A DNA stretch of 64,000 bases, taken from positions 1 through 64,000 of the forward strand of contig NZ_FNAM01000025.1 in NCBI RefSeq assembly GCF_900101845.1, written 5' to 3'. This DNA comes from Sporomusa acidovorans. GTDB lineage: Bacteria; Bacillota; Negativicutes; Sporomusales; Sporomusaceae. The notes under the pieces are model-generated. The model was not told the DNA's origin and made no database searches. It saw only the letters and a list, made by a program, of their open reading frames with translations. This document shows, in pieces, positions 6,526 through 25,508 of the stretch. Both the position numbers and the translations under genes were made by a program. Every line of letters starts with the position of its first letter. Position 1 is the first letter of the stretch.

Positions 6526-6575
6526 GGCCATAGACTAAAGATGTCTTGCTGTAGTCTATGGCCTGCTTTATTAGA
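6526..6575. terminator. Bidirectional terminator between activator and dehydrogenase
   Basis: A 12-bp stem GGCCATAGACTA/TAGTCTATGGCC (6526-6563) followed by a T-rich stretch, between two converging genes. It can serve both strands. Confidence 0.75.
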
Positions 6576-7626
6576 ACGGTTTTACCAAAATTTTAATGTT
6601 TTCTTCCTTGCGATTAATTAACTCTTCAAAACCTTTGCCAACAATGTCATCAAGATGAATCTTGCCGGTAATCAATGGCTCCACATCAATTCTGCCATCA
6701 GAAACCAATTGTATAGCCGGGGCAAATTCGCCATAATACCCCAGTGATCCGGTAACTTCTTTTTCTGTAAAGGACAGGGCATTGAAATTTAATGTCGATG
6801 CTTTTTCAAAAATACCGACAATCACCACCCGGCCTGCGGAACGGGCAAGTTCGATAGCGATCGGCGCCGTTTTATCACTGCCAATACACTCAAATACAAC
6901 ATCAGCGCCGCCGTTGGTCAAATCTTTTACAGCCTTTACTACATCTGTCTCAGTCGGGTCTAATACAGCCGTGGCACCGGCCTGTAAGGCGTATTCCTTC
7001 CTGGCTTTAGCCACTTCAATCGTATAGATCTTGCTTGCTCCGGCCGCTTTGGCGCACATCAGGGCGGAAAGGCCGATTGTACCCGCGCCCATAACGACAA
7101 CGGTATCCCCCTGCACCAGCGGTGCACGCCGAATGGCATGCATGGCCACTGCCAAAGGTTCAATGACCGCGCCAACCTCATATGACATCTTATCAGGAAT
7201 CTTATACATGGTGTAGGCCGGTACATTCACATATTCGGCAAACGCCCCATCCGTCATTAAGCCTGTAAAGGCCAGCTTGTCACACAGGCTATAGCGGTTC
7301 TCCCTGCAGCGCGCGCATTCCCAACACACCTGGCAAGCATCAGGGGCGACCCTGTCACCTACTTTTACGTTGGTAACATCCGGGCCAATTTCTACCACAT
7401 CGCCGGAAAACTCATGTCCCAGTATTAAAGGCGCCGTATTACCTGTCAATGGGTGCGGTTTATCAACAGGTATAAAAATCGGACCGGCAATATATTCGTG
7501 AAGATCCGAACCACAAATTCCGCACCACTGCACCTTAACCTTGACCCAGCCTTTTGGCGGGCTGGGCGGCTCAGGAACATCCATGACTCGCACATCTTTT
7601 TTGCCATACCAAACCGCTGCTTTCAT
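6571..7626 (-). CDS. Zinc alcohol dehydrogenase, 2,3-butanediol dehydrogenase-like
   Basis: A 351-residue medium-chain zinc dehydrogenase. Catalytic zinc ligands are in CGICGSDLHEY and GHEF. A structural zinc cluster CQVCWECARCRENRYSLC and a NAD-binding Rossmann motif VMGAGTIGLSA are visible. Sequence style and length match (R,R)-butanediol dehydrogenases, which interconvert acetoin and 2,3-butanediol with NAD. This fits with the acetoin dehydrogenase operon 17 kb away: butanediol would be oxidised to acetoin and then cleaved. L-threonine or sorbitol dehydrogenases are alternatives. A sigma-54 promoter lies 76 bases upstream, pointing to control by the neighbouring PocR activator. Confidence 0.82.
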   Translation of the reverse strand: MKAAVWYGKKDVRVMDVPEPPSPPKGWVKVKVQWCGICGSDLHEYIAGPIFIPVDKPHPLTGNTAPLILGHEFSGDVVEIGPDVTNVKVGDRVAPDACQVCWECARCRENRYSLCDKLAFTGLMTDGAFAEYVNVPAYTMYKIPDKMSYEVGAVIEPLAVAMHAIRRAPLVQGDTVVVMGAGTIGLSALMCAKAAGASKIYTIEVAKARKEYALQAGATAVLDPTETDVVKAVKDLTNGGADVVFECIGSDKTAPIAIELARSAGRVVIVGIFEKASTLNFNALSFTEKEVTGSLGYYGEFAPAIQLVSDGRIDVEPLITGKIHLDDIVGKGFEELINRKEENIKILVKPF

Positions 7627-7701: not shown

Positions 7702-7717
7702 TGCAAAAAACGCGCCA
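7702..7717 (-). promoter_or_regulatory. Sigma-54 (-24/-12) promoter of the butanediol dehydrogenase-like gene
   Basis: Minus strand TGGCGCGTTTTTTGCA: the -24 GG and -12 GC elements have the fixed spacing of TGGCAC-N5-TTGCA. It lies 76 bases upstream of the dehydrogenase ATG. Confidence 0.85.
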
Positions 7718-7944: not shown

Positions 7945-7980
7945 AAAAGTAATCCCCGGACTCCAAAAAATCCGGGGAAT
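7945..7980 (-). terminator. Terminator of the lipoyl/acetoin gene string
   Basis: Minus strand CCCCGGA, a 10-base loop, TCCGGGG, then ATTACTTTTT, beginning 8 bases after the stop codon of the DUF116 gene. Confidence 0.85.
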
Positions 7981-7987
7981 GGTGTAA

Positions 7988-9553
7988 TTATGAAATGCCC
8001 TCCAAAAGCCGGCAAAGAAGTTGTTTTTTTAGTTTTGTTTGGTTTGCAAAATGCCCCTGATAAGCTTCTTGTTCTTGGCCAAGTTCATAACAGGTACTAT
8101 CATCCACATTTACCAGTATCCCCGGCAATCCTATCTGTTCAAAATCCCTGGCGTGTTTATTCCAAAAGGATTCACAGCAGGTGCCGATAAACAGCTTGCA
8201 GCCGCGTTTCTTCAAGTTTTTCAACGTCTCTTCCAGCATCTCGTAATTTTGAATCGTAATTGGTTCCAAACCATATTGATCCGCTAAGCTATAAGCCTCG
8301 CTTACATCACACCGTCCACACCGTCCGCAGCCCTCGGTATAACGATAGGGGCAATCTACGGCTTTGGCGCAATAAGGAATAAGCAGCGGCTTGTGTTTTC
8401 CCCCGGAAATATGGTTAAATACATTGCCAACCATGGTAAGATCAAGAATATCCTCCGGCTTAGCCCCCCACTGTAAAAATGCAAGCTTATCAACCGCTTT
8501 GCCTATCGTCCTCGTGAAAATTTCTGGCGAAACCAGTAAGACATGTGCTTGTTGGTTAGTAAAACAAGTGCTGATTGTTTGGCTGATACAGGCAACATCA
8601 GGGGGAAGACCAATTAATCCGGCTTCGATTTTTTCAATTATATTGGCGGGGTAAGCAGCAAAGTCACCCGTAATGGATACGCCTGTAATACAGCGTTGCT
8701 TCCTATCCAGGAAGACAGAAACGGTAATGAAAGTTCGTTTTGTATACGTATTTCGCAGTTGATAACTGTTGGACGGCAAAGCTGTTGCCCTATTAAACAC
8801 CCATTGCGGGGCTGCGACCTCCTGACAGGCGGTGTCCAAGTAGTCTTTACTTATTGGTAAATGATTGCTTACGGTAGAAATATCAAAAACTTGACAAAAC
8901 CCCAGGATCATTGCCGACTTCACCGTATTTAATGAGGGGACTTCACCAAGAGCATCAGCTAGACTGGTAAATTTCTTTCTATATTTATTAATGTCTTTGT
9001 TTTGTAATTTTTCTCTGGGAATACGCAAGGCACGCAGTAATGTGCTAACGTCAATATCCTTACTATAGATATAACCCTGATATAAAAAAGCCTGGCCGGT
9101 ACGCGTACCACAAAACCAGCCAATTTCACAGCCAGCCAGTTCGATTGTCGAGGGATATTGGTAACGCACATTCAGCCCCAGCATTTTCAAGCCACTGACT
9201 AGAGCGGCGCCAATTTTCCTCTGCAACGCTTCAATCTGCCGCGGAGTGACAACATCTTGCTGATACAGCACAACCTCCCAGCCCAAGGTTGCCTCTCTGT
9301 CCCAATAGATGGTTTTGCCACCGGTTAATCTGCGGCTGACCGTGATACCGTTATCTTTACAAAAGCTTAAACGCACTTCCTGCTCAGCTTTTTGATAATA
9401 ACCCAGGATAATACAATCAGCGTCATACTGAAAGAAGCGGATGGTATCAGCAACCACTTGCCGGCTACAGGCAGCTAATAATGTTTTATCTGTCGCAATG
9501 CCTTGAAAACATGTTTCATATCCTGAATCGATTACCTGCCAAACTTGCTTCAT
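7988..9553 (-). CDS. Degenerate lipoate ligase-like domain fused to DUF116
   Basis: A 521-residue two-part protein. Residues 1 to about 330 have the lipoate-protein ligase fold signature. However, the RRxxGGG motif reads RRLTGGK (74-80), and the catalytic-lysine motif, G(K/R)KI(S/A)G in the two paralogues here, reads GCEIGWFCG (141-149). So the ATP-dependent ligase reaction looks lost. The C-terminal part is DUF116, with cysteines in YCAKAVDCPYRYTEGCGRC and a TCYELG-type segment, probably an iron-sulfur or metal site. The start at 9553 is chosen because GGAGG lies 9 bases upstream; a longer frame to 9694 would overlap the previous gene by 110 bases. It is the last gene of the string. A scaffold, sulfur-handling or lipoyl-binding role in LipS-type assembly is inference. 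Confidence 0.8.
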   Translation of the reverse strand: MKQVWQVIDSGYETCFQGIATDKTLLAACSRQVVADTIRFFQYDADCIILGYYQKAEQEVRLSFCKDNGITVSRRLTGGKTIYWDREATLGWEVVLYQQDVVTPRQIEALQRKIGAALVSGLKMLGLNVRYQYPSTIELAGCEIGWFCGTRTGQAFLYQGYIYSKDIDVSTLLRALRIPREKLQNKDINKYRKKFTSLADALGEVPSLNTVKSAMILGFCQVFDISTVSNHLPISKDYLDTACQEVAAPQWVFNRATALPSNSYQLRNTYTKRTFITVSVFLDRKQRCITGVSITGDFAAYPANIIEKIEAGLIGLPPDVACISQTISTCFTNQQAHVLLVSPEIFTRTIGKAVDKLAFLQWGAKPEDILDLTMVGNVFNHISGGKHKPLLIPYCAKAVDCPYRYTEGCGRCGRCDVSEAYSLADQYGLEPITIQNYEMLEETLKNLKKRGCKLFIGTCCESFWNKHARDFEQIGLPGILVNVDDSTCYELGQEQEAYQGHFANQTKLKKQLLCRLLEGIS

Positions 9554-9584
9554 ATTGCCAATCCTCCAAAACGGCATCATTTTT

Positions 9585-10466
9585 TCAAAAAATACCGCAA
9601 CACATCTCCTGATAAGCAATTTTATAGCCGCACGAACTCGCATAATCCACCGTTTCCCTGGCTGGATAAGCGATAGCGTTGAAGCCGGCGTCAATGGCTA
9701 ATAATTCAACAGAACGCGAGTAGTGTCCCGGCGGACGGGCACACCCTAAAGCAATGGGGATGTCAGGCAAAAGCTTTCTTGCCTGCCGGAAGATTTCTCT
9801 CACTGCATAGAGCGGCGGAAAAGTTACATTACTCATCGGCGTATTTTTAAGAGGATTTAGTAGGACAAGAATCAAACTGTCGGCACCTTCAGCGGCTACC
9901 ATGTCAAGCGCTTTAAATTCCCCGCGAATTTCGCCATAGTGAAGGCCGATTACAATATGCGGCGATGTTTTCAAGCCGGCGTGACGGGCGGTCCGTAAAC
10001 TTATTTGATAATCGGCAGACGTATAGGGTAGATGATATACGTTACGAATGGTATCGTCATCACCAATTAAATCAAGAGCTACCCTGGTAATGTTGGCTCC
10101 GGCCAGCAAATGTGCCGTATCATCGCTCAACACGCCCGGATGAACCACGACCGCCAAGCCAAGCGCCGCAACCTGTTCGATCGCTTTCGCGAACGGACGC
10201 AATGGTACAGAACCGTCCGCGCAGGCACCGCCGCTAATGAGTACACCCTGACAACCTTGCTTGCGTAAATTCTTAGCCAACTCCACTAATTTTTCCGGCT
10301 CTGTTACGGATATCATACTATTTAGCAGTTTTCCCTGACAGTGTTCACACCGGCATTCACACGCAGCACCGGTTAAACTGATATTTACAAACGAATTGGC
10401 ATGATTTTGATACAGGCCGTTGTCATAGTATCTTGTGCCAGGCACATAAAACACAATATTACGCAT
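9585..10466 (-). CDS. Radical SAM protein, LipS-type lipoyl synthase component
   Basis: A 293-residue radical SAM protein. The cluster motif is ACECRCEHC (C36, C40 and C43, with an extra C38). A GVLISGG strand follows, and there is a cysteine pair near the C-terminus (MCCGIF). Two small radical SAM proteins, LipS1 and LipS2, jointly insert the two sulfurs of lipoate in archaea and some bacteria that use an sLpl-type ligase. This gene and the next upstream fit that pair, because they sit between LipT-like and ligase-like genes. Which is LipS1 and which LipS2 I do not assign. The ATG overlaps the upstream gene's stop in ATGCGTAA, so translation is coupled. Confidence 0.75.
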   Translation of the reverse strand: MRNIVFYVPGTRYYDNGLYQNHANSFVNISLTGAACECRCEHCQGKLLNSMISVTEPEKLVELAKNLRKQGCQGVLISGGACADGSVPLRPFAKAIEQVAALGLAVVVHPGVLSDDTAHLLAGANITRVALDLIGDDDTIRNVYHLPYTSADYQISLRTARHAGLKTSPHIVIGLHYGEIRGEFKALDMVAAEGADSLILVLLNPLKNTPMSNVTFPPLYAVREIFRQARKLLPDIPIALGCARPPGHYSRSVELLAIDAGFNAIAYPARETVDYASSCGYKIAYQEMCCGIF

Positions 10467-11529
10467 GCCAAATCTGTCCTTTGATAATTTCTAAATCGCT
10501 TTCTTCCGGGCTAAAGGGATAATTTTTCAATACCGTCCCCGGCCTTTCGTTGCCATACGGCCGGTTGCAAGCAACACAACCTTCGTGGTTAGGGCAACCG
10601 GAAGTCATAAACGGCTGACCTGCCGCCAGCTTATCGCCCAATAACTCCTCTAATGGTCTGCCGTAACTGATAATTTGTCCTTGGGAATTAAACGTAACAT
10701 CACGTAGCGTAATTTGTTTATGATTGAAAAAAAACGCTGCTAACTGGATACGCCGATATTGCCCGTAGGAAGGCGGCTGATGATTACTTAACTTACTGCC
10801 TGGCTCCGGACAGAAGGAAAATAGATGAGCCTGCGCTCCATATTGACCAGCCCTGGCGATGGTATGCACCATGTCCTGTTCGCTTTCCCCCAAGCCCACG
10901 ATTAAGTGTACACTGACTTTATCCCGGCCAAAAACCGTAACAGCCTGTTCAATTGACTGCCAGTACTTCTCCCAGCGGTGCGGCCCACCGGCTGCGCTGC
11001 CCCGCATGTTGGAAAATAGCTCCGGCGTCGCTGCGTCAACCGCAATCCCCACCATGTCTGCCCCGGCTGATTGTAACTGTTTAAAAAAGGAAGTGGCATC
11101 CTGCAGTACGGTTGGCGAAGCTAGAACACTAATCGGTAATTGTGTCGTCCGCAGCTGCTCAACCATAGAAATGCTATCTTGCGCCGCCTGAGGATGCGTA
11201 ATCATCGATATACAAATCCTGCCAAGCTTTTGAATTTTAACCGCCGCATGCTGCGGTGGCCGCATTAAGCGTTCCATGATCGTTGATAACTCATATGTCG
11301 GCCACTTTACTCTGATAAAGGTGCTCTTATCAGGTTCGATTTTTCGTTCTCTGGCAAGGCCGCAATAACCGCAGTTCGCACGGCAGCCATCTTGATAGGT
11401 CATAAGTAAATTTAAGCTTCCCGGATAAGCGTTACGATAAAAACTGCCTGGCTCCAACCCCAGGGCCATTGCGCCAGCCAGGCTGGTCTGCACAAAATCC
11501 GGACTTTCCTGTCTGCAAACAGTATCCAT
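10459..11529 (-). CDS. Radical SAM protein, LipS-type lipoyl synthase component (BioB-like)
   Basis: A 356-residue radical SAM protein. The primary cluster motif is CRANCGYC (C49, C53, C56). The C-terminus has a second cysteine set, SGCPNHEGCVACNRPYGNE, which could hold an auxiliary cluster used as sulfur donor, as in lipoyl and biotin synthases. Its partner gene overlaps its 3' end by 8 bases. The start at 11529 is chosen because GAGGGG lies 5 bases upstream; the frame extends to an ATG at 11547 lacking any RBS. Automatic annotation would probably say 'radical SAM' or 'biotin synthase-like'; the gene context argues for lipoate assembly. Confidence 0.77.
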   Translation of the reverse strand: MDTVCRQESPDFVQTSLAGAMALGLEPGSFYRNAYPGSLNLLMTYQDGCRANCGYCGLARERKIEPDKSTFIRVKWPTYELSTIMERLMRPPQHAAVKIQKLGRICISMITHPQAAQDSISMVEQLRTTQLPISVLASPTVLQDATSFFKQLQSAGADMVGIAVDAATPELFSNMRGSAAGGPHRWEKYWQSIEQAVTVFGRDKVSVHLIVGLGESEQDMVHTIARAGQYGAQAHLFSFCPEPGSKLSNHQPPSYGQYRRIQLAAFFFNHKQITLRDVTFNSQGQIISYGRPLEELLGDKLAAGQPFMTSGCPNHEGCVACNRPYGNERPGTVLKNYPFSPEESDLEIIKGQIWHA

Positions 11530-11561
11530 GACAGCCCCTCCCCCCATAAAATTGCCTGTTG

Positions 11562-12650
11562 CTATTGCGTATAATACTCCGGAAATGCAATCCAGCTGCG
11601 CCGGATCAGCGCCAAAAATTTTTCCGGATCATTGGTCCATTCCCGGTTGCGACTGTTTAACCGTTCGCGGGCAATGGCAAACTGCCTGCTATACTCCTCA
11701 TGTAATATACGCGGGTAATTTTCACTTACGAGATGTTCGTCCTTACTCTTTACCTGTCTGATAACCGCCATTGCCGCCAGGTGTCCGCTCCTCACAGCAT
11801 TCATAATCCCCGCGCCTGTTACCGGATGCGTACAACCGGCTGCGTCACCGGCCAAAAGCATATTTTTTTGGGCCAAACAGCCCGCTAACCCGCCGGTAGG
11901 GATAAAACCACCGGTTTTGGCCACAATCCTGTCCGATTGTACAACTTGCCGCTGCATAAGGCTGCGGCAAAATTCATGTAATAAGCAGTGTAACTGATTT
12001 TTAACCGAAGCGTGAATGGCTATCCCGGCATTAACAGTATTTCCTTTAGGAAAAGCCCAGGCATAGCCGCCGTAATAGTCCGGCTCAAAATAGATCTCAA
12101 CATGCGTCATCGGCTTATGAAGCAACAGCTCATATTGAAGGGCAACACAATTTTCCTGCCGCCCGTTTCCCAGTCGGCCACTGACTAAGGAATGCGGGCC
12201 GTCGCAGCCCAAAATAAATGTTGCGTAAATTTTTCCCCTTTCGGTTCCCTTTGTTATTGTCACGGCATGATCTCCGACGGCAACAGCACGGGTCGCGCTC
12301 ATAACGGTAACCCCCGCGTTTTTTGCCTCATCGGCCTGATACTTATCCCACAAATTGCGGTTAAGCGTATACCCGGGTGCAGCTAACGTATGGACCGGCT
12401 TACCGTTAATAAAGGTTTTAATGCCCTCAACCCGCTGGGCAATATCGCCCGCCCGGAGCGGCGCATACCGGGAAATCGGACGCGGCACAAATTCGGCACA
12501 TTGAATCTTGTTACCAATTTCCAAACGTTGATCCAGCAGAGCCACCTTAAGCCCTGCCTGACCAAGCCGTTTCGCCGCCGTACTGCCGGCCGGCCCGGCC
12601 CCGATGACAACAGCATCATAGTACTCATCTGGCGGCTTCACGGCAATCAC
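11562..12650 (-). CDS. LipT-like FAD oxidoreductase (geranylgeranyl reductase family)
   Basis: A 362-residue flavoprotein with an N-terminal dinucleotide fold VVIGAGPAGSTAAKRL and a later GDAAGCTHPVTGAG FAD motif, as in geranylgeranyl reductase-family proteins. In sLpl/LipS1/LipS2 loci a flavoprotein of this family, LipT, is a conserved partner, thought to supply electrons or handle intermediates. The start is GTG at 12650 or GTG at 12641, overlapping the ligase-like gene's end, so coupling is likely. Lipid reduction is less likely, because no isoprenoid genes are nearby. Confidence 0.72.
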   Translation of the reverse strand: MIAVKPPDEYYDAVVIGAGPAGSTAAKRLGQAGLKVALLDQRLEIGNKIQCAEFVPRPISRYAPLRAGDIAQRVEGIKTFINGKPVHTLAAPGYTLNRNLWDKYQADEAKNAGVTVMSATRAVAVGDHAVTITKGTERGKIYATFILGCDGPHSLVSGRLGNGRQENCVALQYELLLHKPMTHVEIYFEPDYYGGYAWAFPKGNTVNAGIAIHASVKNQLHCLLHEFCRSLMQRQVVQSDRIVAKTGGFIPTGGLAGCLAQKNMLLAGDAAGCTHPVTGAGIMNAVRSGHLAAMAVIRQVKSKDEHLVSENYPRILHEEYSRQFAIARERLNSRNREWTNDPEKFLALIRRSWIAFPEYYTQ

Positions 12651-13755
12651 TCATTTCCATTCGCTTCATTGCTTGGGCCTTATCGACGGCAAGCAATACG
12701 GCCGTGACAAAATGTTCAGGGAAAACACCCGGAATTTCGACCTGATTGGTTTGAAAAAAACGGGTAATAGCAGCCGCGATTCGTTGTTTGTCGATAGGTA
12801 GGTTTTTTAGCGTTGTTTCCAGGTCATTAATCGTTCTCGCTGGATAAGCAAAAAAATCGCCGCTGATTATCACATACTTGATTACCTGTACGGCTTCATC
12901 CAGGCGCATTTGCACCCGGATAAGCCCCCCCGGTGTCTTGTAGTTGGTTGTAGAATCTAGTGTATTAATCACGTGACCAACTTGGCCGAAAACCCAGGCA
13001 TCGCTGCGGAAATAGGGCAAGGTTTCCGCAAACATTCGTTCTTCCGGCAACGTTAATTCCCCGGGAAAAAAATCATACCCTAACGTTGCTTGCAGGTTTT
13101 TTAAAATTGCCTGCTTTATTACTTGCTGTTCGGGCACATACCCGAGCTGGTCTTGCAATGATGTCACCCGTTCCCGCATGGATTTGACGGCTTTATCATC
13201 CAGCTTTTCCAAAGGAAACCGTAAGACCCGGAGCATTTCATCAATATCGAAATCCACCAGTAAACTACATTGAAAGACAAAGGAATCCGCCAGTTCAGTG
13301 CCGCCGGTTCCCGCGATTTTACGCCCGTTTATTTCAATATCATTGACCGGACGGTAAGCGGCTTTTACTCCCATCGTTGTTAAACTTCGGGCCATGGCCT
13401 CGCATAATAAGCGGTACATGTTTTCCACTTTACGGGGGATACCCGGTGTCTTTTTACTGGCATACATTTCCCAGCCTAATTCTAAGCGTCCCCAGTAGAG
13501 GCTGCCGCCGCCGGTAATTCGCCGGTTGATATGAATACCGTGCTGGCGGCAATAGGGGACGTTCACTTCCAAAAATACATTTTGATGAATACCGACCAGC
13601 GCACAGGGTTTAAACTGCAGAAACCGTAAGGTATTAGGAATAAGTTCCCGGCTATGAGCTTCCATGATGACTTGGTCTAAGGCCATATGCTCGGCGGCGG
13701 TGCGCGGCGCTGAATCCAACACCCGGAAGACGGTATAGTTATCCTGATTACGCAT
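12625..13755 (-). CDS. Lipoate-protein ligase-like protein (sLplA type), copy 2
   Basis: A 376-residue protein of the lipoate/octanoate ligase family. RRITGGGSLYW carries the intact glycine-rich motif, and NGRKIAGTGG the expected catalytic lysine, so it should be an active ligase attaching lipoate or octanoate to a carrier lysine. The natural target is one of the two adjacent GcvH-like proteins. The ATG at 13755 lies inside the stop region of the GcvH-like gene (ATGCGTAA, 8-base overlap), which fixes the start better than the longer frame to 13797. Confidence 0.82.
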   Translation of the reverse strand: MRNQDNYTVFRVLDSAPRTAAEHMALDQVIMEAHSRELIPNTLRFLQFKPCALVGIHQNVFLEVNVPYCRQHGIHINRRITGGGSLYWGRLELGWEMYASKKTPGIPRKVENMYRLLCEAMARSLTTMGVKAAYRPVNDIEINGRKIAGTGGTELADSFVFQCSLLVDFDIDEMLRVLRFPLEKLDDKAVKSMRERVTSLQDQLGYVPEQQVIKQAILKNLQATLGYDFFPGELTLPEERMFAETLPYFRSDAWVFGQVGHVINTLDSTTNYKTPGGLIRVQMRLDEAVQVIKYVIISGDFFAYPARTINDLETTLKNLPIDKQRIAAAITRFFQTNQVEIPGVFPEHFVTAVLLAVDKAQAMKRMEMSDCREAAR

Positions 13756-14158
13756 CGGCTTTCTCATCTTCTGTAAGCCACGCGCATAACTCCGCAACCG
13801 TCATAAGGCCAGCGAATTCTCCAGGGTTGGTTATTTCAATTTCCGCAAACCAGCTATTATAGGGAAACTGGTTAATAAGTGCCGGCGTGGCAACAACATT
13901 CTCATTCACTTTGGTTACTCTACCGCTTACAGGTGAATACACACGTCCTACCCATTTGCCGGCTTCCAGCGATCCACAGGCATTGCCTCCTTCAACCTGT
14001 GTTCCGGCAGCCGGCAATGCCAGATAGAGAATATCGCCCGTGATCTCCAGCCCATAAGGAGTCAACCCAAAGTAAACTTTATTTTCGTCTTTCTTGACCC
14101 ATTGATAGTGCGTATCATAGAATAGGTTTTCAGGAAAATTCCGTTTATTAACTTCCAC
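13748..14158 (-). CDS. GcvH-like lipoyl carrier protein, copy 2
   Basis: A 136-residue protein with the glycine cleavage H-protein fold: YDTHYQWVKKDENKVYFGLT, ITGDILYLALP, and the lipoyl site EAGKWVGRVYSPVSG with K68 as the expected lipoylated lysine. No glycine cleavage P or T protein is in the window. The site (GKWVG) differs from the usual VKA of GcvH and is shared with the second copy at 16851-17270. It more resembles the lipoate-binding proteins (LbpA) tied to heterodisulfide reductase-like systems. GTG start with a GGGGGAG site. Translationally coupled to the ligase downstream. Confidence 0.85.
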   Translation of the reverse strand: MEVNKRNFPENLFYDTHYQWVKKDENKVYFGLTPYGLEITGDILYLALPAAGTQVEGGNACGSLEAGKWVGRVYSPVSGRVTKVNENVVATPALINQFPYNSWFAEIEITNPGEFAGLMTVAELCAWLTEDEKADA

Positions 14159-14184
14159 CTTATCTCCCCCCTTTGTGTTCCGGC

Positions 14185-15354
14185 TTACTCCTCCACGGCC
14201 ATTAACAGCAATTCGGCTATGTCCATAACCGTTAGCGGCAGTTTTTCCGTCCGGGCTGCTTTCTCCAGCATCTGCTCACATTGCTGACAAGCAGATACGA
14301 CAATCGCAGCACCGGTTGCCGCAGCCTCCCTGATACGTTTACAGGCAATAGCGTCCGCTAAACCGGGATCAGCCCCCTGCAGATTTCCCCCGCCGCCACA
14401 GCAGGTTGATTCCTCCCCATGGGTTGCCATTTCCACAAATGTTATTCCCGGGATGCTGTTGATGATCGTGCGCGGTATTTGAACAACACCGCTGTTGCGC
14501 CCTAAATCACAGGGATCATGATAGGTAACCGTCTCCTTCAACTCTTGGGGAACTAATTTGCCTTGCGCAATCAATTCTGCCAGTAATTCTGTTGCATGGA
14601 CCAGCCGGAAACCAAGATCTTCACCCAAAATTTCCGGATAAATATGACTCCAGACATGATAGCAGGAGGCACAACCGGTCACCAGTGTTTTTACTCCCAT
14701 TTCCCGTATCTTAGCAACATTGTGTCTGGCAAACTCCGTTATTGCCGCTGCCTGTCCGGCCGCCAGCAAAGGAAAACCGCAGCACCATTCTTCCGAGCCC
14801 AAGGTAGTAAAATTAACCTGTGCCTTCTGCAATAGCTGCACCATGGCAACAGGAATCTGGGCAGCCCGCGGGAAAAATGAGGATACGCAGCCGACAAAAT
14901 ACGCGACTTCCGCCCCCGGCTCTTGATCCAGACTGTCAGGTATCTCATCCAGATCCTCCGCCCAATCCAGCCGGGTTACATTATCAAAGCTGGAAATGTT
15001 TTTTCTGCTTTTTAAATTATCAGTCATGGCCTGATATGCTGCCGGCGCTTTGCCTTCAGCGACAAGCCGGCTCCGCAAATCCTTCCATAGTGACTGAAGG
15101 TCTATCCTGGCAGCGCATGCCCGGGTGCAGGCGCCGCATAGCGTACACTGCGTAACCCTTTTGGCATATTCGGGGCTTATCCCGCCCTGGCTGTTTCGGG
15201 CAAACAATTCGCGAGCCAGCGAAATCTTGGCCCGGGGTGTTGCCGATTCCCACCCGATCTCCCGGTAAACCGGACAATCGTTCCGGCAATTGCCGCAGCG
15301 TCCACATATAAGGGATTCATCGATTAGATTCTGATAAAAACTGGGCAAGCTCAT
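14185..15354 (-). CDS. Iron-sulfur protein with two CCG (HdrB-like) domains, GlcF-like
   Basis: A 389-residue protein. Residues 17-27 and 70-80 carry two CxxCxxCxxxC ferredoxin motifs for [4Fe-4S] clusters. Two complete CCG motifs follow: C156, C191-C192, C228xxC231; and C282, C318-C319, C356xxC359. The spacing matches the CX31-39CCX35-36CXXC pattern that holds the non-cubane clusters of HdrB, which split or form disulfides. GlcF and lactate utilisation proteins share this build. The start at 15354 overlaps the oxidase stop as ATGA, with GGGAGGGAGG upstream; the longer frame to 15384 is rejected. It likely forms a complex with the FAD oxidase, moving electrons between FAD and a disulfide such as lipoyl (inference). 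Confidence 0.87.
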   Translation of the reverse strand: MSLPSFYQNLIDESLICGRCGNCRNDCPVYREIGWESATPRAKISLARELFARNSQGGISPEYAKRVTQCTLCGACTRACAARIDLQSLWKDLRSRLVAEGKAPAAYQAMTDNLKSRKNISSFDNVTRLDWAEDLDEIPDSLDQEPGAEVAYFVGCVSSFFPRAAQIPVAMVQLLQKAQVNFTTLGSEEWCCGFPLLAAGQAAAITEFARHNVAKIREMGVKTLVTGCASCYHVWSHIYPEILGEDLGFRLVHATELLAELIAQGKLVPQELKETVTYHDPCDLGRNSGVVQIPRTIINSIPGITFVEMATHGEESTCCGGGGNLQGADPGLADAIACKRIREAAATGAAIVVSACQQCEQMLEKAARTEKLPLTVMDIAELLLMAVEE

Positions 15355-16808
15355 GGCTGATTCCTCCCTCCCCTGTACACCCACCGGGTAGCGGCCAAAA
15401 CATCCATTCCTACCGCAAATAAGGGGGGTTTAAGTAATAAAGGTGCCTCATACCGTTTTCCGGGATTCATGATGTTATGCGGATCAAGCAGTTGCTTGCG
15501 CCGCTTTAATTCGGCAAGTTCCTGATTGGTTTGGCATCTGGACAAATAAGGCGTATTCCAAAGGCCGATGCCGTACGGTACGCCACCATGTCTGGCACCA
15601 ATGTCATGCAGTTTTTTTACCAGGGCTAATCCCTGCAGATAGCCAACCGTATCCCGTTCATCTGCATTAAACATCGTCATAATCATGGCATATTGGGGAG
15701 ATATAATATGCCCGTAACTGTTTATTTTCAGCTTTTGTTTATCACCAAAGGCAGCAACAGCAGCCAAATAATCGGCAAGTTTTAGGATCGGCAGGCAAAT
15801 TTCCGCCCCTAATAACGAAGGCCCTTCCCGTTTTAAAACCAAAGAATAAAACCGGTGCCGCCATTCCTGGTTTCCCTCCGTCTCTCCCAACTCTCCTCCC
15901 TTTGCTGCCTGTAAACAGCGCTTAAAGGCTAAACGGGCTGTCTGCGTTTCCTCTGCCGAGCCGTCGGCATCAAAAGCAACCGTGTAAGCTTCTCCTGACT
16001 GCGATCCTGCCAGCCCCAGGCGCTGCCTGCGCGAATTGCAGCCCGGATCGCTAAAGTGCAGGTTGAAAGGCTTGTTTTTTAACTCTACAGCCTCTTCGAT
16101 AAAAGTCTGCATTTGCCCGGCATTCTCAAATACAGCTACGTTATGCCACTCAGTTTCCGGCTTGGAACGCACCTTGAGCTCAACTTCCATCACAATACCC
16201 AATGTTCCCTCCGAAGCGGCAAACCAGGTTAGCGGCGGCTTGCTGGTTTTATCCAGTTTTTTATTACTGCCGTCAGGCAAAACCACCTGCGCTGCAACGA
16301 CCTGGTCCATTACCGGACCATATTGTAAACTGCCAATGCCATATCCCATCATGACCAGCCAGCCGCCAATGGTAGCAGCCTGCGCGCTGCTGGGATATGA
16401 GCAGGTAGCCAGGCCAAACGGTTCAAGCCGCCGTTCAAGCTCCCACCAGGTCATGCCTGCCCCCACCCGGACAACACGATTTTCCGCGTCTACGGCTGTC
16501 AAACCGTTTACGCCGTTGATGTCAAGGATGATGCCGTTTTGTGTACAAACGGCGTTGAAATAAACAGTAGATCCCCCAGCCCGGGTTGTTACGGCAACCT
16601 TTTGTTCCTTGGCCAGTTTAACAAGGCAGGCAACTTCTTCTGTGGTTTGGGGTCTGACGACGATGTCCGGCAGCGTATGGGCCAGTGGCTTGACTAAAAA
16701 ATCCGGAATAGGCGCCAAATCCCGTTCATAAAAGCTACGTTCAAAGTCATCCGTTGTGGCGCGATTACCAAAGATACTTTTTACCTGTTCCACTGTCTGC
16801 GCATCCAT
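15351..16808 (-). CDS. FAD-binding oxidase, GlcD-like
   Basis: A 485-residue protein of the PCMH-type FAD family that includes the glycolate and D-lactate dehydrogenase subunit GlcD. The FAD domain has PDIVVRPQTTEEVACLVKLA, TRAGGSTVYFNAV and ATIGGWLVMMGYGIGS. The usual second glycine-rich segment (GGxxxTNAGG) is altered. A C-terminal FAD-linked oxidase domain ends KRRKQLLDPHNIMNPGKRY. Oxidises a 2-hydroxy acid or related donor in known relatives. Here it is fused in context, by a 4-base stop/start overlap, to the CCG iron-sulfur gene and flanked by lipoyl carriers, so the physiological partner may be dihydrolipoyl protein. The real substrate cannot be read from sequence. Confidence 0.85.
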   Translation of the reverse strand: MDAQTVEQVKSIFGNRATTDDFERSFYERDLAPIPDFLVKPLAHTLPDIVVRPQTTEEVACLVKLAKEQKVAVTTRAGGSTVYFNAVCTQNGIILDINGVNGLTAVDAENRVVRVGAGMTWWELERRLEPFGLATCSYPSSAQAATIGGWLVMMGYGIGSLQYGPVMDQVVAAQVVLPDGSNKKLDKTSKPPLTWFAASEGTLGIVMEVELKVRSKPETEWHNVAVFENAGQMQTFIEEAVELKNKPFNLHFSDPGCNSRRQRLGLAGSQSGEAYTVAFDADGSAEETQTARLAFKRCLQAAKGGELGETEGNQEWRHRFYSLVLKREGPSLLGAEICLPILKLADYLAAVAAFGDKQKLKINSYGHIISPQYAMIMTMFNADERDTVGYLQGLALVKKLHDIGARHGGVPYGIGLWNTPYLSRCQTNQELAELKRRKQLLDPHNIMNPGKRYEAPLLLKPPLFAVGMDVLAATRWVYRGGRNQP

Positions 16809-16850
16809 ATATTTCCCCCTTTCCTCACAAAAGCCGGTTTGATCATGCCA

Positions 16851-17270
16851 TTAGTCCTTTTTAGCATATTTGGCGTGTTCTTCCGTGAAAAATTTGTCGG
16901 CGTCTTCGCCGCAAATCAGACCCTTCAAACCTTCCTCCAGGTTATCGGCTTCCATAACACAAATCCAGCCTGCTCCATAGCAGTCGCTGTTTAACAGCTT
17001 CGGATTACCCGGTAATTCGGTATTGGCCTCAAGAATCTTGCCGGCTAAAGGCACCTGAATTTTCCCCGCCCATTTTCCTGATTGAATGGAACTCAGCGTT
17101 GCTCCGGCCGCCAATGTTTTACCCACCCGGGGAATCCGGATGAAGGTAATCTCCCCGGCCAACTTTTGCATAAAGTCGGTAATCCCAATACGAATCTTGT
17201 TTCCCTCCACTTTTACCCACGCATGATCATGCGTATAATATAAACTTTGCGGGCTATCATAAAGCGCCAC
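16851..17270 (-). CDS. GcvH-like lipoyl carrier protein, copy 1
   Basis: A 139-residue H-protein-like carrier: YYTHDHAWVKVEGNKIRIGIT, LAGEITFIRIPRVG, and lipoyl site IQSGKWAGKIQVPLAG with K66 as the predicted lipoylated lysine. It shares the GKW(A/V)G site with the copy at 13748 but is otherwise well diverged, so this is not a recent duplication. GTG start with AGGAGT upstream. Its C-terminus ends in a charged tail (EEHAKYAKKD). First gene after the palindromic repeat at 17.3 kb. Having two carriers fits either two partner enzymes or a donor/acceptor pair. Confidence 0.85.
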   Translation of the reverse strand: MALYDSPQSLYYTHDHAWVKVEGNKIRIGITDFMQKLAGEITFIRIPRVGKTLAAGATLSSIQSGKWAGKIQVPLAGKILEANTELPGNPKLLNSDCYGAGWICVMEADNLEEGLKGLICGEDADKFFTEEHAKYAKKD

Positions 17271-17395: not shown

Positions 17396-18493
17396 TCATC
17401 TAGCTAGTATCCAGTCGCTAAATATGTCCAGAAAAAGAGTTGCTTCGCCATCCTCCTGGTTTTGCGTCCACTTTTTTAGTGCCTGCGCAACAGCAAGCTC
17501 CTGCAAATAACAGCCGTTTAAAAATTGTGGCAGCGACTGAAGATTTACATTCTCCAGACATGAAAGTCCCTGAGATTCAAACTCAATAATCCGGTTGTTT
17601 TGCACAACCATAATGCCATAGCCGGAGCAGGGGCGGCCAAACCTGCCAGGGCAGCGGCTTTGGCCGTCAAGCGAAGATCTGATACACTGGGGAAAAGGAT
17701 GCAGCCGCACATAGGTTCCTTCGTTTATTTTTATTTGGCGGATCTTACTCCGTTTCCCGGGCAAATGTAAGAATTCCTGACTTGTTAGATAACCGGCTAT
17801 ACTGGCGGTGGCTTCTTTCATGTCCTCGGAATACACTCCCGGTTCCAGCTCCAGCCAGGCCGCAAAATGATCAGCCAGCTTTTTCTCCACTGCCTCAATC
17901 GCAGGCATATACCCCAATTCCTCACCCATGGTTGTTAAATATTTTTCCAGTGATAATTTTATCCACTCGCGATAACGACAACTGGCGGCATGGAGTACAT
18001 TGGCCATAACCGTGCGGTCAAACGCCAGTAAAATATTGCCGGTATAGACCGCGAAGCCATTTATGTCGCCGGCACCATTGCCGGAAATTTTTTTACCGTT
18101 AACAACAATATCGGCCGGCAGTTTAACCGCGGCGTTTATGCCAAAATCTGCTAAGGTTTTGATTGCCGGTTGGAGAAACCGGTGAAAAAACTGTTCTCTT
18201 TTACCTGTCAACAGCGGGTTGGTTGCCCGTAAAACAAGTTGAAAAAATAGCTGCCCCTCTGCCAGCAAAACCGTGCCGCCGCCAATATCCCGCCGAATCA
18301 GCGGGATATTATTTTCCTGGCAATACCGCTGGTCTAGTTCTTGCTGCAAATCATCATGCAATCCGAGGCAAACGCAGCGGGACAAGGGGCGGCAGAGTAC
18401 CAGCCCTTCCTGCCGCATTTGCGCCAGGGCATGATAGACGGCCTGTGTCTCATCCCAGGGTATAGCGCCCAGTCGATACAACTTCATCGGCAA
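17396..18493 (-). CDS. Lipoate-protein ligase-like protein, copy 3
   Basis: A 365-residue protein of the lipoate ligase family. RRDIGGGTVLL and NGKKISGNGAG carry the intact glycine motif and the catalytic lysine, so an active ligase or lipoyl/octanoyl transferase is expected. After about residue 250 there is a long C-terminal extension with four cysteines in LHPFPQCIRSS, SRCPGRFGRPCSGYG and LSCLEN, possibly a metal site; this extension is unusual. The start is TTG at 18493 (GAGG 6 bases upstream) or ATG at 18487, both overlapping lipB. Following lipB, it could load AcoC or a GcvH-like carrier. Confidence 0.78.
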   Translation of the reverse strand: MPMKLYRLGAIPWDETQAVYHALAQMRQEGLVLCRPLSRCVCLGLHDDLQQELDQRYCQENNIPLIRRDIGGGTVLLAEGQLFFQLVLRATNPLLTGKREQFFHRFLQPAIKTLADFGINAAVKLPADIVVNGKKISGNGAGDINGFAVYTGNILLAFDRTVMANVLHAASCRYREWIKLSLEKYLTTMGEELGYMPAIEAVEKKLADHFAAWLELEPGVYSEDMKEATASIAGYLTSQEFLHLPGKRSKIRQIKINEGTYVRLHPFPQCIRSSLDGQSRCPGRFGRPCSGYGIMVVQNNRIIEFESQGLSCLENVNLQSLPQFLNGCYLQELAVAQALKKWTQNQEDGEATLFLDIFSDWILAR

Positions 18494-19145
18494 AATTCAC
18501 CTCAAATATGTCGGCAAACTGGTTAAGTAAGGTCATACCAACCTCAGCAAGACTGACTTCGATGCCTAACTCCCGCATCGACACGACAGGCCGGTCCGTA
18601 ATCCCGCAGGGATTAATCATGTCGAAATAACTCATGTCAGGATTAATATTCAAGGAAAACCCGTGCATGGTGACCCAACTGCGCGCCCCAATACCAATGG
18701 CCGCTATTTTTCCTCGTTCAGTCCAGACACCTGTCAGCCCCGGTTCTCTAAAACTGTTTATCCGGTATTTGGCCAGCGTCCTGATAATAACTTCTTCCAG
18801 TTGGGTACTGTAATAATGCAGGTCTTGCCTGTATCCCCGCAGGTCCAGGATAGGATACCCAACCAGTTGACCGGGACCGTGATAAGTAATATCGCCGCCC
18901 CGGTCAACTTCAATCACTTCCAGCCCCCGTTTGCGCAGAACCTTGTCCGAAACCTTGATATTGTTCCTGCTGCCGCCGCGGCCTATGGTATATACCGGCA
19001 AGTGTTCAACAAACAACAGTGTGTCCTGCCCCGTGCCGCTGCGCCTTTTGGCGGCAAGTTCCTGTTGAAACTGCCAAGCTTCCTGATAGGGAAGCAGCCC
19101 TAAATGTAACAATTGGCAGGTTTTATAGCGTGTTTTATTTTTCAA
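18450..19145 (-). CDS. lipB: Octanoyltransferase LipB
   Basis: A 231-residue enzyme that moves the octanoyl group from acyl carrier protein to lipoyl domains, the first step of canonical lipoate synthesis. The signature RGGDITYHGPGQLVGYP, lysine region GKIAAIGIGARSWVTMHG and the catalytic cysteine in NPCGI are all present. The TTG start overlaps the DUF6506 stop (TTGA). With lipA three genes upstream it gives the acetoin dehydrogenase its own lipoylation supply. Confidence 0.95.
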   Translation of the reverse strand: MKNKTRYKTCQLLHLGLLPYQEAWQFQQELAAKRRSGTGQDTLLFVEHLPVYTIGRGGSRNNIKVSDKVLRKRGLEVIEVDRGGDITYHGPGQLVGYPILDLRGYRQDLHYYSTQLEEVIIRTLAKYRINSFREPGLTGVWTERGKIAAIGIGARSWVTMHGFSLNINPDMSYFDMINPCGITDRPVVSMRELGIEVSLAEVGMTLLNQFADIFEVNFADEVVSTGRYTLG

Positions 19146-19441
19146 AACAGCTCATCGCCGCTTTTACCGGCAAGCCCGGGATGGATATCAAACCGCACTA
19201 CCCCAACAACGGCTTTGTTGTTCGCAGCTTTTTTTACGGCAGCTACCCCTTCGTGGCCAAAACCGCCGCATAGTTCAATGGCGCCGATTCCTTGAGCAAC
19301 AAGTTCTTTTACTGTTGCTACCGCTGACAGGTAATCACTGACCCCGATAACCGTCAATTCTACCTGGGGCGTTGTTATCACCGACCGGTGTTGTTGACTG
19401 TTGGCCTCAGGGGCAATAAAAATAAAGGCCGCTTTCAGCAT
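19142..19441 (-). CDS. DUF6506 family protein
   Basis: A small protein of 99 residues (MLKAAFIFIAPEANSQQHR at the N-terminus) with the DUF6506 pattern, ending in GVVRFDIHPG. Function unknown. The start at 19441 follows a strong GGAGGG site; a longer frame to 19471 exists but lacks an RBS. It lies between lipA and lipB in the presumed operon and overlaps lipB by 4 bases, so a link to lipoyl or acetoin metabolism is plausible by context only. Confidence 0.7.
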   Translation of the reverse strand: MLKAAFIFIAPEANSQQHRSVITTPQVELTVIGVSDYLSAVATVKELVAQGIGAIELCGGFGHEGVAAVKKAANNKAVVGVVRFDIHPGLAGKSGDELF

Positions 19442-19543
19442 TTTTATCCCTCCTTCATTGCTATACAACATGCTAAAGATTTTGCCGATACACCGCCTGC
19501 CTGCGCCACCCAGCTTTTTGCCTGCGGAGTATAGGACAATAAA

Positions 19544-22009: not shown

Positions 22010-22034
22010 CATTGTCCTCCTCTTGACTATGTTT

Positions 22035-25492: not shown

Positions 25493-25508
25493 TGCAAATC
25501 TCATGCCA
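25493..25508 (-). promoter_or_regulatory. Sigma-54 (-24/-12) promoter of the acetoin operon
   Basis: Minus strand TGGCATGAGATTTGCA, matching TGGCAC-N5-TTGCA at the -24 GG and -12 GC. It lies directly after the acoR terminator and about 65 bases upstream of the first operon gene. It presumably drives the whole string down to 7.95 kb. Confidence 0.92.

What the first reader, a model, noticed from the sequence alone, without database searches (positions are those of the whole stretch)
7945..17270. A lipoyl-carrier redox module with a CCG iron-sulfur protein and its own lipoate assembly genes
Seen: two GcvH-like proteins with a shared GKW(A/V)G lipoylation site (K66, K68), a GlcD-like FAD oxidase and an iron-sulfur protein with two complete HdrB-type CCG motifs (4-base overlap between these two), a ligase-like protein with intact motifs, a LipT-like flavoprotein, two radical SAM proteins and a DUF116 fusion, all in one direction to one terminator. 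Known: HdrB-type CCG clusters handle disulfides; LbpA carriers work with heterodisulfide reductase-like (sHdr) systems; LipS1/LipS2/LipT/sLpl make lipoate for them. Here the sHdr set is absent and a GlcDF-like pair takes its place. Inference: a lipoyl-dependent oxidoreductase not matching the described sHdr or glycine cleavage systems, with lipoyl as the swinging disulfide.
Basis: partly seen in the sequence, partly recalled or inferred. Interest (0 to 1): 0.93.

Follow-up and report, generated by a model that had tools for sequence, protein, structure and literature searches.

The report
Acetoin dehydrogenase with replaced E3
A bacterial operon for breaking down acetoin lacks the usual last enzyme (E3) and carries in its place small lipoyl carrier proteins, a thiol adaptor and a flavin/iron-sulfur pair that probably take the electrons away by another route.

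Summary
The genes are there as described, but the frame was too small. The stretch is the second half of one acetoin-dehydrogenase-type operon (25426->7988) with a sigma-54-like promoter: E1alpha, E1beta, AcoX-like, E2, AhpD, LipA, LipB, ligase, GcvH1, GlcD-like, CCG protein, GcvH2, ligase, LipT, LipS2, LipS1, ligase-DUF116. It contains no lipoamide dehydrogenase (E3).

Of 22 such loci with GlcD-CCG, 19 lack E3 and all 19 carry AhpD, free or fused to E2; the 3 with E3 lack AhpD. In 75 loci AhpD and E3 never occur together. Sporomusa sp. KB1 keeps the operon with no E3 and no glycine-cleavage P-protein detected. One relative has HdrABC-MvhD in place of GlcD-CCG; four have a haem protein with GcvH-CCG, and E3. 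The GlcD-like protein has lost the hydroxyacid catalytic pair. The carriers are neither canonical GcvH nor LbpA by the features tested.

Best reading: dihydrolipoyl-E2 is re-oxidised through AhpD and lipoyl-GcvH by the CCG/flavin pair, in place of E3. Electron steps and acceptor are inferred; E3 acting in trans is not excluded outside KB1. New variant of a known kind.

The parts
25494..25508 (-). sigma-54 type -24/-12 promoter-like site upstream of the operon
   Evidence: one mismatch to TGGCACN5TTGC; 12 such matches in the window, 6.2 expected by chance; a like site lies near the start of the same first gene in 18 of 19 related loci examined
25064..25426 (-). Lin0512-family protein, first gene of the operon
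   Evidence: Pfam PF09585 6.3e-40
24051..25007 (-). AcoA-like E1 alpha
   Evidence: Pfam E1_dh 1.6e-92
23060..24028 (-). AcoB-like E1 beta
   Evidence: Pfam Transket_pyr and Transketolase_C
22035..23042 (-). AcoX-like protein (NAD-kinase family; the name AcoX is recalled)
   Evidence: Pfam NAD_kinase 3.8e-13; no NCBIfam hit; acoX is stated to be typical of acetoin clusters in PMC3543383 (passages)
20816..22096 (-). E2 with lipoyl, E3_binding and acyltransferase domains
   Evidence: Pfam
20434..20775 (-). AhpD-family protein, CxxC (C61, C64) and H68; proposed thiol adaptor
   Evidence: Pfam CMD 2.9e-22; TIGR00778 AhpD core domain 44 bits, cut-off 27.8
19544..20434 (-). LipA lipoyl synthase
   Evidence: TIGR00510 375 bits, cut-off 310
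19142..19471 (-). DUF6506 protein
   Evidence: Pfam PF20116 2.1e-36
18450..19145 (-). LipB octanoyltransferase
   Evidence: TIGR00214 175 bits, cut-off 84
17396..18493 (-). lipoate-protein-ligase-like protein (Lpl3), lysine motif present
   Evidence: Pfam LplA-B_cat 4.9e-31; motif alignment of 22
16851..17270 (-). lipoyl carrier GcvH1, site QSGK66WAG
   Evidence: Pfam GCV_H; QSGKWAG in 23 of 23 rows of its set
15351..16808 (-). GlcD-like FAD protein without the hydroxyacid catalytic pair
   Evidence: Pfam, model pLDDT 89 with D-lactate-dehydrogenase/LctD fold, site lost
14185..15384 (-). CCG iron-sulfur protein (two 4Fe-4S motifs, two CCG motifs); proposed site of lipoyl dithiol oxidation
   Evidence: Pfam CCG 1.2e-32, two stretches; 18 Cys invariant in 26 of 26; nearest folds EtfD, LutA, HdrB
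13748..14158 (-). lipoyl carrier GcvH2, site EAGK68WVG
   Evidence: Pfam GCV_H; GKWVG in 24 of 24 rows of its set
12625..13797 (-). LplAB-type lipoate-protein ligase
   Evidence: Pfam LplA-B_cat 8e-45 and Lip_prot_lig_C
11562..12650 (-). LipT-like flavoprotein (geranylgeranyl-reductase superfamily)
   Evidence: TIGR02032 196 bits, cut-off 158.8; the name LipT rests on position between ligase and LipS2
10459..11547 (-). LipS2-like radical SAM lipoyl synthase
   Evidence: NF053743 9.3e-69, full length, below cut-off
9585..10466 (-). LipS1-like radical SAM lipoyl synthase
   Evidence: NF053742 1.1e-62, full length, below cut-off
7988..9694 (-). ligase-DUF116 fusion; ligase lysine motif degenerate, DUF116 cysteines kept
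   Evidence: Pfam LplA-B_cat 5.9e-24, DUF116 1.5e-12; alignment of 14
7953..7978 (-). terminator-like hairpin after the last gene
   Evidence: 11-pair stem with T-rich tail
6571..7626 (-). zinc alcohol dehydrogenase, probable butanediol dehydrogenase (inferred), separate unit
   Evidence: Pfam ADH_N and ADH_zinc_N; sigma-54-like site at 7703-7717 minus
25699..27681 (-). AcoR-type sigma-54 activator (name recalled)
   Evidence: sequence and place; like proteins at the same place in related loci
4611..6515 (+). second sigma-54 activator of AcoR type (name recalled)

Best explanation
The operon encodes an acetoin-type dehydrogenase complex whose E3 (NAD-linked lipoamide dehydrogenase) is replaced by a lipoyl-carrier and iron-sulfur/flavin route. 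E1 and E2 cleave acetoin to acetaldehyde and acetyl-CoA, leaving dihydrolipoyl-E2. AhpD (CxxC), encoded next to E2 or fused to it, takes the two electrons by thiol-disulfide exchange and passes them to the lipoyl arm of the GcvH-like carrier(s). The CCG protein, a HdrD/TfrB-like subunit, oxidises the carrier dithiol at its non-cubane cluster(s) and sends single electrons through two 4Fe-4S clusters to the FAD of the GlcD-like subunit, which hands them to a non-NAD acceptor (ETF, ferredoxin/flavodoxin or quinone; not identified). LipB/LipA probably lipoylate E2 and GcvH1, and LplAB-LipT-LipS2-LipS1 probably GcvH2. Shown: gene content, absence of E3 in the cluster, conservation of sites, loss of the hydroxyacid site, swaps in relatives. 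Inferred: the acetoin substrate, every electron-transfer step, its direction, the acceptor, and which machinery lipoylates which carrier.
For: (1) E3 is missing from the operon; the genome's two lipoamide dehydrogenases lie elsewhere. (2) 75 loci with E1a, E1b and E2: AhpD with E3 0, AhpD only 25, E3 only 31, neither 19 (Fisher p 3e-8, loci not independent). In the AcoX survey of the window's phylum alone (25 loci): 0, 9, 10, 6 (p 0.003). (3) Of 22 such loci with GlcD-CCG (21 plus G701), 3 have E3 and the other 19 have AhpD; none has both. (4) E2-AhpD fusions in 3 loci with the module and 2 without (L045 and L117 confirmed by Pfam). (5) Sporomusa sp. KB1 (G006): operon present, no E3, no GcvP, no GcvH-type match at E <= 1e-10 besides the two carriers. 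(6) Gene swap: HdrC-, HdrB- and HdrA/MvhD-like genes in place of GlcD-CCG behind AhpD and GcvH in L120. (7) CCG beside GlcD in 36 of 36 GlcD rows, a carrier in 33 of 36. (8) The E-H pair of GlcD is lost in 27 of 27. (9) Best named relative of the CCG protein is TfrB. (10) AhpD is reported to be reduced by a lipoamide-containing E2 (PMC8945050, passages).
Against: E2 keeps an E3_binding domain, though it may serve E1. The window's genome has two E3 genes that could act in trans, and G401, the HdrABC case, also has two elsewhere. Three GlcD-CCG loci carry E3 as well (L070, G639, G701), and four loci have GcvH and CCG near a haem protein together with E3 (haem protein checked by Pfam in two), so the module is not tied to loss of E3. 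Two loci with E2-AhpD fusion have no GlcD or carrier (L117, L118), and six loci of the AcoX survey have neither E3 nor AhpD. In three of the 25 AhpD loci (L229, L231, L234) the AhpD gene is on the other strand from the E1/E2 genes. GlcD-CCG-GcvH also occurs without E1/E2 genes in the stretch seen (L049, L051-L054, L079, L080), so its role is wider. Two of eight same-genus genomes lack the GlcD gene, one of them 99% complete. No acceptor gene was found. Nothing was measured.
Confidence: 0.55

Rival explanations
1. E3 is supplied in trans. The lipoamide dehydrogenase of the glycine cleavage cluster or the lipoyl-E3 fusion elsewhere serves the acetoin complex, and the carrier/CCG/GlcD module is a side branch that gives dihydrolipoyl electrons a second exit.
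For: Two E3 genes in the genome; E2 retains the E3_binding domain; 22 of 26 genome handles examined (two of them, G200 and G411, look like one genome) have an E3-family match at E <= 1e-60, 21 above the curated cut-off; loci with both E3 and the module exist.
Against: Sporomusa sp. KB1 has no E3 found by three searches and keeps the operon. AhpD and E3 never share a locus among 75.
Confidence: 0.2
2. The module serves lipoate assembly. The GcvH-like proteins are octanoyl/lipoyl relays towards E2, as GcvH is in the LipM/LipL route, and GlcD-CCG supplies electrons for LipS1/LipS2.
For: Carriers stand among LipA, LipB, ligases, LipT, LipS1 and LipS2; relay through GcvH is described for Bacillus subtilis (PMC10332631, passages).
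Against: GcvH1-GlcD-CCG occurs with LipA but no LipS1/LipS2, LipB or ligase (L043), and with one ligase-like gene and no LipA or LipS (L053, L054) in the stretches seen. LipB is described as an all-purpose transferase (PMC10332631), so no relay is needed. The HdrABC swap fits redox use of the carrier better.
Confidence: 0.13
3. GlcD-CCG is an ordinary 2-hydroxyacid dehydrogenase (lactate or glycolate) that happens to stand in the operon.
For: Fold of D-lactate dehydrogenase and LctD; GlcD-type Pfam and NCBIfam hits.
Against: Far below the curated GlcD cut-off (130 of 568 bits); the E-H of EHGIG is replaced by P411 (27 of 27) and Y412 (25 of 27), and an invariant W417-N418 follows; a lipoyl carrier stands beside it in 33 of 36 GlcD rows.
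Confidence: 0.04
4. The carriers bear a substrate-derived group (as H-protein bears an aminomethyl group) and the pair oxidises that adduct rather than the dithiol.
For: The carriers are GcvH folds; an unusual site (GKW) and two carrier types occur side by side.
Against: No P- or T-protein domain among the operon proteins scanned; CCG subunits are known for thiol/disulfide chemistry (recalled; TfrB and HdrB are the named relatives).
Confidence: 0.05

Closest known systems
Acetoin dehydrogenase cluster acoABCSL of Pelobacter carbinolicus (PMC3543383, passages)
   Same: E1alpha, E1beta, E2, AcoX, a lipoyl synthase, LipB, AcoR-type regulators and butanediol dehydrogenase
   Different: AcoL (E3) is absent here; AhpD, two GcvH-like carriers, GlcD-like and CCG proteins and a second lipoylation set are present
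LarG lipoyl carrier proposed in P. carbinolicus (same paper, passages)
   Same: A GcvH-like lipoyl protein proposed as a disulfide electron carrier
   Different: There beside the Act complex and re-oxidised by lipoamide dehydrogenase; no CCG/GlcD pair and no acetoin E2 in that proposal as seen in the passages
sHdr-LbpA sulfur oxidation system (PMC6067878, passages and one section)
   Same: GcvH-like lipoyl carrier with CCG-type disulfide proteins and sLpl/LipS1/LipS2/LipT-type maturation genes; a Firmicutes/Actinobacteria arrangement with EtfBA is described there
   Different: No shdr set in this operon; carriers lack the paired cysteines reported for LbpA; proposed donor is an acetoin E2; CCG paired with a GlcD-like flavoprotein
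HdrABC-MvhD type heterodisulfide reductase
   Same: Takes the place of GlcD-CCG in one relative's acetoin-type operon (L120)
   Different: Different flavoprotein; bifurcation not implied for GlcD-CCG
Thiol:fumarate reductase TfrAB (TfrB model NF004898)
   Same: CCG protein is nearest to TfrB by score; thiol oxidation coupled to a flavoprotein (function recalled)
   Different: Below the TfrB cut-off; the flavoprotein is VAO-type, not TfrA-like
LctD of the Acetobacterium woodii Ldh-EtfAB complex (7qh2) and mammalian D-lactate dehydrogenase
   Same: Fold of the GlcD-like protein
   Different: Hydroxyacid catalytic E-H pair lost; no ETF genes in the operon
AhpD fed by a lipoyl E2 in mycobacteria (Bryk 2002, seen only as a citation in PMC8945050)
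   Same: AhpD-family CxxC protein linked to a lipoyl E2
   Different: Here linked to a catabolic operon and to absence of E3, not to a peroxiredoxin

Membership tests
Acetoin dehydrogenase complex | E1alpha, E1beta and lipoyl E2 encoded together | tested here: met
   Pfam hits
Acetoin dehydrogenase complex | E3 (lipoamide dehydrogenase) in the cluster | tested here: not met
   no Lpd hit in window 3001-28500; genome copies lie elsewhere
Acetoin dehydrogenase complex | acts on acetoin | not testable with these tools
   inferred from AcoX-like, AcoR-like, sigma-54-like promoter and butanediol-dehydrogenase-like neighbours; NCBIfam E1/E2 hits are mainly PDH-type and mostly below cut-off
LbpA (sHdr lipoyl carrier) | strictly conserved lipoylation lysine | tested here: met
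   60 of 60 rows
LbpA (sHdr lipoyl carrier) | two conserved cysteines, near the N and C termini (PMC6067878 section 6) | tested here: not met
   no column before GcvH1 position 59 has 3 or more Cys in GcvH1 (23), GcvH2 (24) or others (13); the most frequent Cys columns reach 8 of 23, 11 of 24 and 6 of 13. No LbpA sequence was compared directly
LbpA (sHdr lipoyl carrier) | encoded with shdr genes | tested here: not met
   no shdr set among the operon genes; the rest of the genome was not searched for it; Hdr-type genes only in relative L120
Canonical GcvH (TIGR00527) | score above curated cut-off 115.85 | tested here: not met
   104.6 (GcvH1) and 84.3 (GcvH2) bits; GcvH1 does pass the broader NF002270 subfamily model, 119.3 of 117
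Canonical GcvH (TIGR00527) | glycine cleavage genes near, ESVK lipoyl site | tested here: not met
   GKW site instead; the genome's own gcv cluster with its H-protein is elsewhere
GlcD / D-2-hydroxyacid dehydrogenase | VAO-type FAD fold | tested here: met
GlcD / D-2-hydroxyacid dehydrogenase | catalytic E-H of the EHGIG motif | tested here: not met
   P411 27 of 27, Y412 25 of 27; aligned to EHGVG of 9qgz; role of the His is recalled, and H405A is a mutant named
HdrD/TfrB-type CCG protein | two 4Fe-4S motifs and two complete CCG motifs | tested here: met
   8 + 10 Cys invariant in 26 of 26
HdrD/TfrB-type CCG protein | TfrB equivalog cut-off | tested here: not met
   178 of 385 bits
AhpD | AhpD core domain with CxxC | tested here: met
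   TIGR00778 44 of 27.8 bits; CEYC at 61-64
AhpD | reduced by a dihydrolipoyl protein | not testable with these tools
   needs purified proteins
LipS1/LipS2 lipoyl synthase | NCBIfam equivalog cut-offs (230, 270) | tested here: inconclusive
   full-length hits of 212 and 232 bits, below both

The most novel reading that the evidence does not exclude
A general E3-independent way of running lipoyl dehydrogenases: soluble lipoyl proteins act as a redox currency between dihydrolipoyl donors (via AhpD) and interchangeable CCG-based oxidases (GlcD-CCG, HdrABC-MvhD, CCG with a multihaem cytochrome), so that acetoin oxidation bypasses NAD and may be coupled to quinone reduction or flavin-based bifurcation; the same module serves other donors in loci without acetoin genes.
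Probability: 0.3. Interest if true: 0.88.

Novelty: new variant of a known kind. Interest (0 to 1): 0.74.

Why it matters
E3 is regarded as the common, NAD-linked end of lipoyl-dependent dehydrogenases. A complex whose E3 is replaced by a thiol adaptor, a lipoyl carrier and an Hdr-like oxidase would change the energetics of acetoin and butanediol growth in acetogens and syntrophs, would give AhpD a role outside oxidative defence, and would show that the LbpA-type carrier principle reaches beyond sulfur oxidation. It can be tested in named species that carry the genes (Sporomusa ovata, Sporomusa sp. KB1, Desulfoluna limicola).

Tried and rejected
GlcD-CCG as a hydroxyacid dehydrogenase: rejected on the lost catalytic pair and context. 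A GlcD-CCG gene fusion in G639 (994-aa ORF in L265), noted as possible: rejected, because Pfam finds no FAD domain in that ORF and the GlcD hit lies in another frame. 'Lpd' in L120 (50% over 48 aa): rejected, it is an HdrA/FlpD-type protein. Strict exclusion of E3 by GlcD-CCG: rejected, 3 of 22 loci have both; AhpD, not GlcD-CCG, is what never meets E3. LipL-type relay: not excluded; Lpl3 keeps the ligase lysine motif, and no conserved cysteine stands where I recall that of LipM/LipL. Rfam scan of 4000-28500: no match. VIA-align was not available. Ten literature searches (PMC open-licence library only, no bioRxiv) gave in their listings no paper that I could recognise as describing an E3-less acetoin dehydrogenase with carrier and CCG protein. 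Of five papers I saw passages (PMC3543383, PMC10332631, PMC6067878 with one section, PMC8945050, PMC3551663); the other listed papers were not opened. PMC10332631 mentions canonical genes linked with lipS1/S2 in several Sporomusa species.

Rows dropped before counts: L083 and L085 (26-30% identity) and duplicate records of the same contigs were left out's module list (L242 repeats L082); the 3 AcoX hits without E1/E2 (L135, L137, L138) and L139 were not units; of its 83 units 8 were dropped for lacking E1a, E1b or E2 (L042, L047, L064, L065, L124, L255, L260, L264), several of them at contig ends. G701 was moved from GlcD-minus to GlcD-plus. Of the 41 best E1b places, 40 were fetched as regions and one lay inside a fetched region; lower places of that call were not examined.

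Full report
WHAT IS THERE. The listed genes are confirmed. They are the downstream part of one run on the minus strand from 25426 to 7988, with gaps of at most 125 bases and many overlaps, ending at a terminator-like hairpin (7978-7953). Upstream of the first gene is a sigma-54-type site (25494-25508; 12 such matches in the window against 6.2 expected). A like site lies near the start of the same first gene in 18 of 19 related loci examined (14 of 15 with the module, 4 of 4 without; about 0.03 expected per stretch; in two of them the site falls at or inside the predicted start). Two sigma-54 activators of AcoR type (name recalled) lie on either side. The upstream part encodes a Lin0512 protein, E1alpha, E1beta, an AcoX-like NAD-kinase-family protein, E2, an AhpD-family protein, LipA, DUF6506, LipB and a ligase. 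This is an acetoin-type dehydrogenase operon; the substrate is inferred from these neighbours and from likeness to the Pelobacter carbinolicus cluster (PMC3543383, passages), not proven: the NCBIfam hits of E1/E2 are mainly PDH-type and mostly below cut-off. Six of eight same-genus genomes have the GlcD gene, and all six have the operon; G007 (58% complete) and G008 (99%) lack it. Named loci are Sporomusa malonica, S. ovata, S. silvacetica and Sporomusa sp. KB1.

NO E3. No lipoamide dehydrogenase lies in the operon. The genome has two elsewhere: one in the glycine cleavage cluster, which has its own H-protein and LipS1/LipS2-like genes, and one fused to a lipoyl domain.

THE PARTS. GlcD-like protein: D-lactate-dehydrogenase/LctD fold (model pLDDT 89), but the E-H pair of the EHGIG motif is P411-Y412 (27 of 27 and 25 of 27) followed by an invariant W417-N418. 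CCG protein: 8 ferredoxin-type and 10 CCG-type cysteines invariant in 26 of 26, best named relative TfrB, nearest folds Mycobacterium EtfD, LutA and HdrB. Carriers: lipoyl lysine in 60 of 60 rows (59 genes); in sets labelled by best BLAST hit, GcvH1 has QSGKWAG in 23 of 23 and GcvH2 has GKWVG in 24 of 24, while the two genuine GcvH have ESVK. In the tree the 23 GcvH1 rows form one clade (99/88) and 23 of the 24 GcvH2 rows another (94/97, just under the tool's mark); the carriers of L070, L120 and the haem-protein loci stand outside both. The paired cysteines reported for LbpA are not conserved here.

COMPARISON. A scan of genome contigs with a GlcD profile gave 30 loci, in Sporomusaceae, Syntrophomonadaceae, Syntrophaceae/Smithella, Desulfoluna, Chloroflexota and others. 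Surveys found the GlcD type in 15 of 398 genomes of the window's phylum and 6 of 395 of the phylum of Desulfoluna, of which three are of the close kind (E below 1e-100); AcoX in 31 of 398. In one search, 36 rows carry GlcD (some are fragments or close kin); CCG is present in 36 of 36 and a carrier in 33 of 36. Of 83 locus units, 75 have E1a, E1b and E2. AhpD and E3 co-occur in 0, AhpD alone in 25 (three of them with AhpD on the other strand), E3 alone in 31, neither in 19. Fisher p is 3e-8, but loci share ancestry; with one Sporomusa only and loci of 12 kb or more (62 units) it is 0, 19, 30, 13; in the AcoX survey alone 0, 9, 10, 6 (p 0.003). Of 22 loci with GlcD-CCG, 19 have AhpD and no E3, and 3 have E3 and no AhpD. 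AhpD is fused to the C terminus of E2 in five loci (L045, L047, L048, L117, L118), two of them checked with Pfam. AhpD is reported to be reduced by a lipoamide-containing E2 (PMC8945050, passages).

SWAPS. In L120 the genes behind E2-AhpD-DUF6506-GcvH are HdrC-, HdrB- and HdrA/MvhD-like, then ligase-DUF116, LipT, LipS2, LipS1; this genome (G401) has two E3 genes elsewhere. So GcvH-CCG looks like the constant part and the flavoprotein or cytochrome the exchangeable exit.

SPOROMUSA SP. KB1. The genome G006 (two contigs, completeness 100, contamination 10; its contig of 5,218,573 bases has the length of NZ_VLKC01000002.1) has the whole operon (L040). It has no E3 at E <= 1e-60 by family or 1e-40 by protein; with every candidate scored, the best E3-family matches are partial (3e-39, model positions 115-435) and of a kind also found in the window's genome beside its true E3. 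It has no GcvP match, and its only GcvH-type matches at E <= 1e-10 are the two carriers. If the assembly is complete, its acetoin complex runs without a classical E3.

MODEL. Dihydrolipoyl-E2 -> AhpD -> lipoyl-GcvH -> CCG clusters -> 4Fe-4S -> FAD -> acceptor. Arrows are inference. The acceptor is unknown: no ETF or ferredoxin gene is in the operon, and the exit differs between relatives. Two lipoylation sets are present. L043, with GcvH1 only, has LipA but no LipB, ligase or LipS1/LipS2, which suggests that LipS1/LipS2 go with GcvH2; this is a weak inference.

AGAINST. E2 keeps its E3_binding domain; E3 exists in trans in 22 of 26 genome handles; the module coexists with E3 in some loci; it also occurs without E1/E2 genes in sight, beside a molybdopterin oxidoreductase (L052), SAH/MTA-recycling-like genes (L053, L054; names recalled from sequence) and MtrH/RACo genes (L079). 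Hence the wider reading: a general lipoyl-carrier oxidase recruited by several pathways.

VERDICT. Real, conserved, and by its promoter-like site part of a sigma-54 acetoin regulon; a new combination of known parts. Confidence that it re-oxidises dihydrolipoyl-E2 in place of E3: 0.55.

Noticed in passing
7988-9694: In the window the ligase half of the ligase-DUF116 fusion has lost the lysine motif (GCEIG), and in three Sporomusa relatives (L039-L041) only the DUF116 half remains, while 8 DUF116-side cysteines are invariant in 14 of 14: DUF116 seems to be the kept part, perhaps an Fe-S or sulfur protein for LipS1/LipS2. One relative (L036) shows no such gene.
   Followed up: partly
L118 (G354) and L117 (G189): Acetoin-type loci with an E2-AhpD fusion but no carrier, GlcD or E3 in the locus; G354 has no E3 above cut-off, no GcvP and no GcvH match in the genome, while G189 has an E3 elsewhere. 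How G354 re-oxidises dihydrolipoyl-E2 is unexplained.
   Followed up: partly
L012:4653-6344: A lipoyl domain fused to lipoamide dehydrogenase, followed by a ligase-like gene, with no E1/E2 genes in the 16 kb seen.
   Followed up: no
L013: The glycine cleavage cluster of this genome carries its own LipS1/LipS2-like pair, ligase and E3, so the genome has two LipS1/LipS2-like sets plus LipA/LipB.
   Followed up: no
L052 (G053): GlcD-CCG-GcvH with ligase-LipT-LipS2-LipS1 beside a molybdopterin oxidoreductase and a pyridine-nucleotide-type FAD protein; this genome has GcvP but no E3 above cut-off.
   Followed up: partly
L053, L054 (G036, G118): GlcD-CCG-GcvH-Lpl3 beside genes that look like SAH and methylthioadenosine recycling (names recalled), with no lipoyl synthase in the stretch seen.
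   Followed up: no
L079: An actinobacterial contig with a GcvH-like protein, ligase, LipA, GlcD and CCG among MtrH and RACo-type genes.
   Followed up: no
17396-18493: Ligase-like Lpl3 has three N-terminal cysteines conserved in 22, 22 and 21 of 22 relatives; their role is unknown.
   Followed up: no
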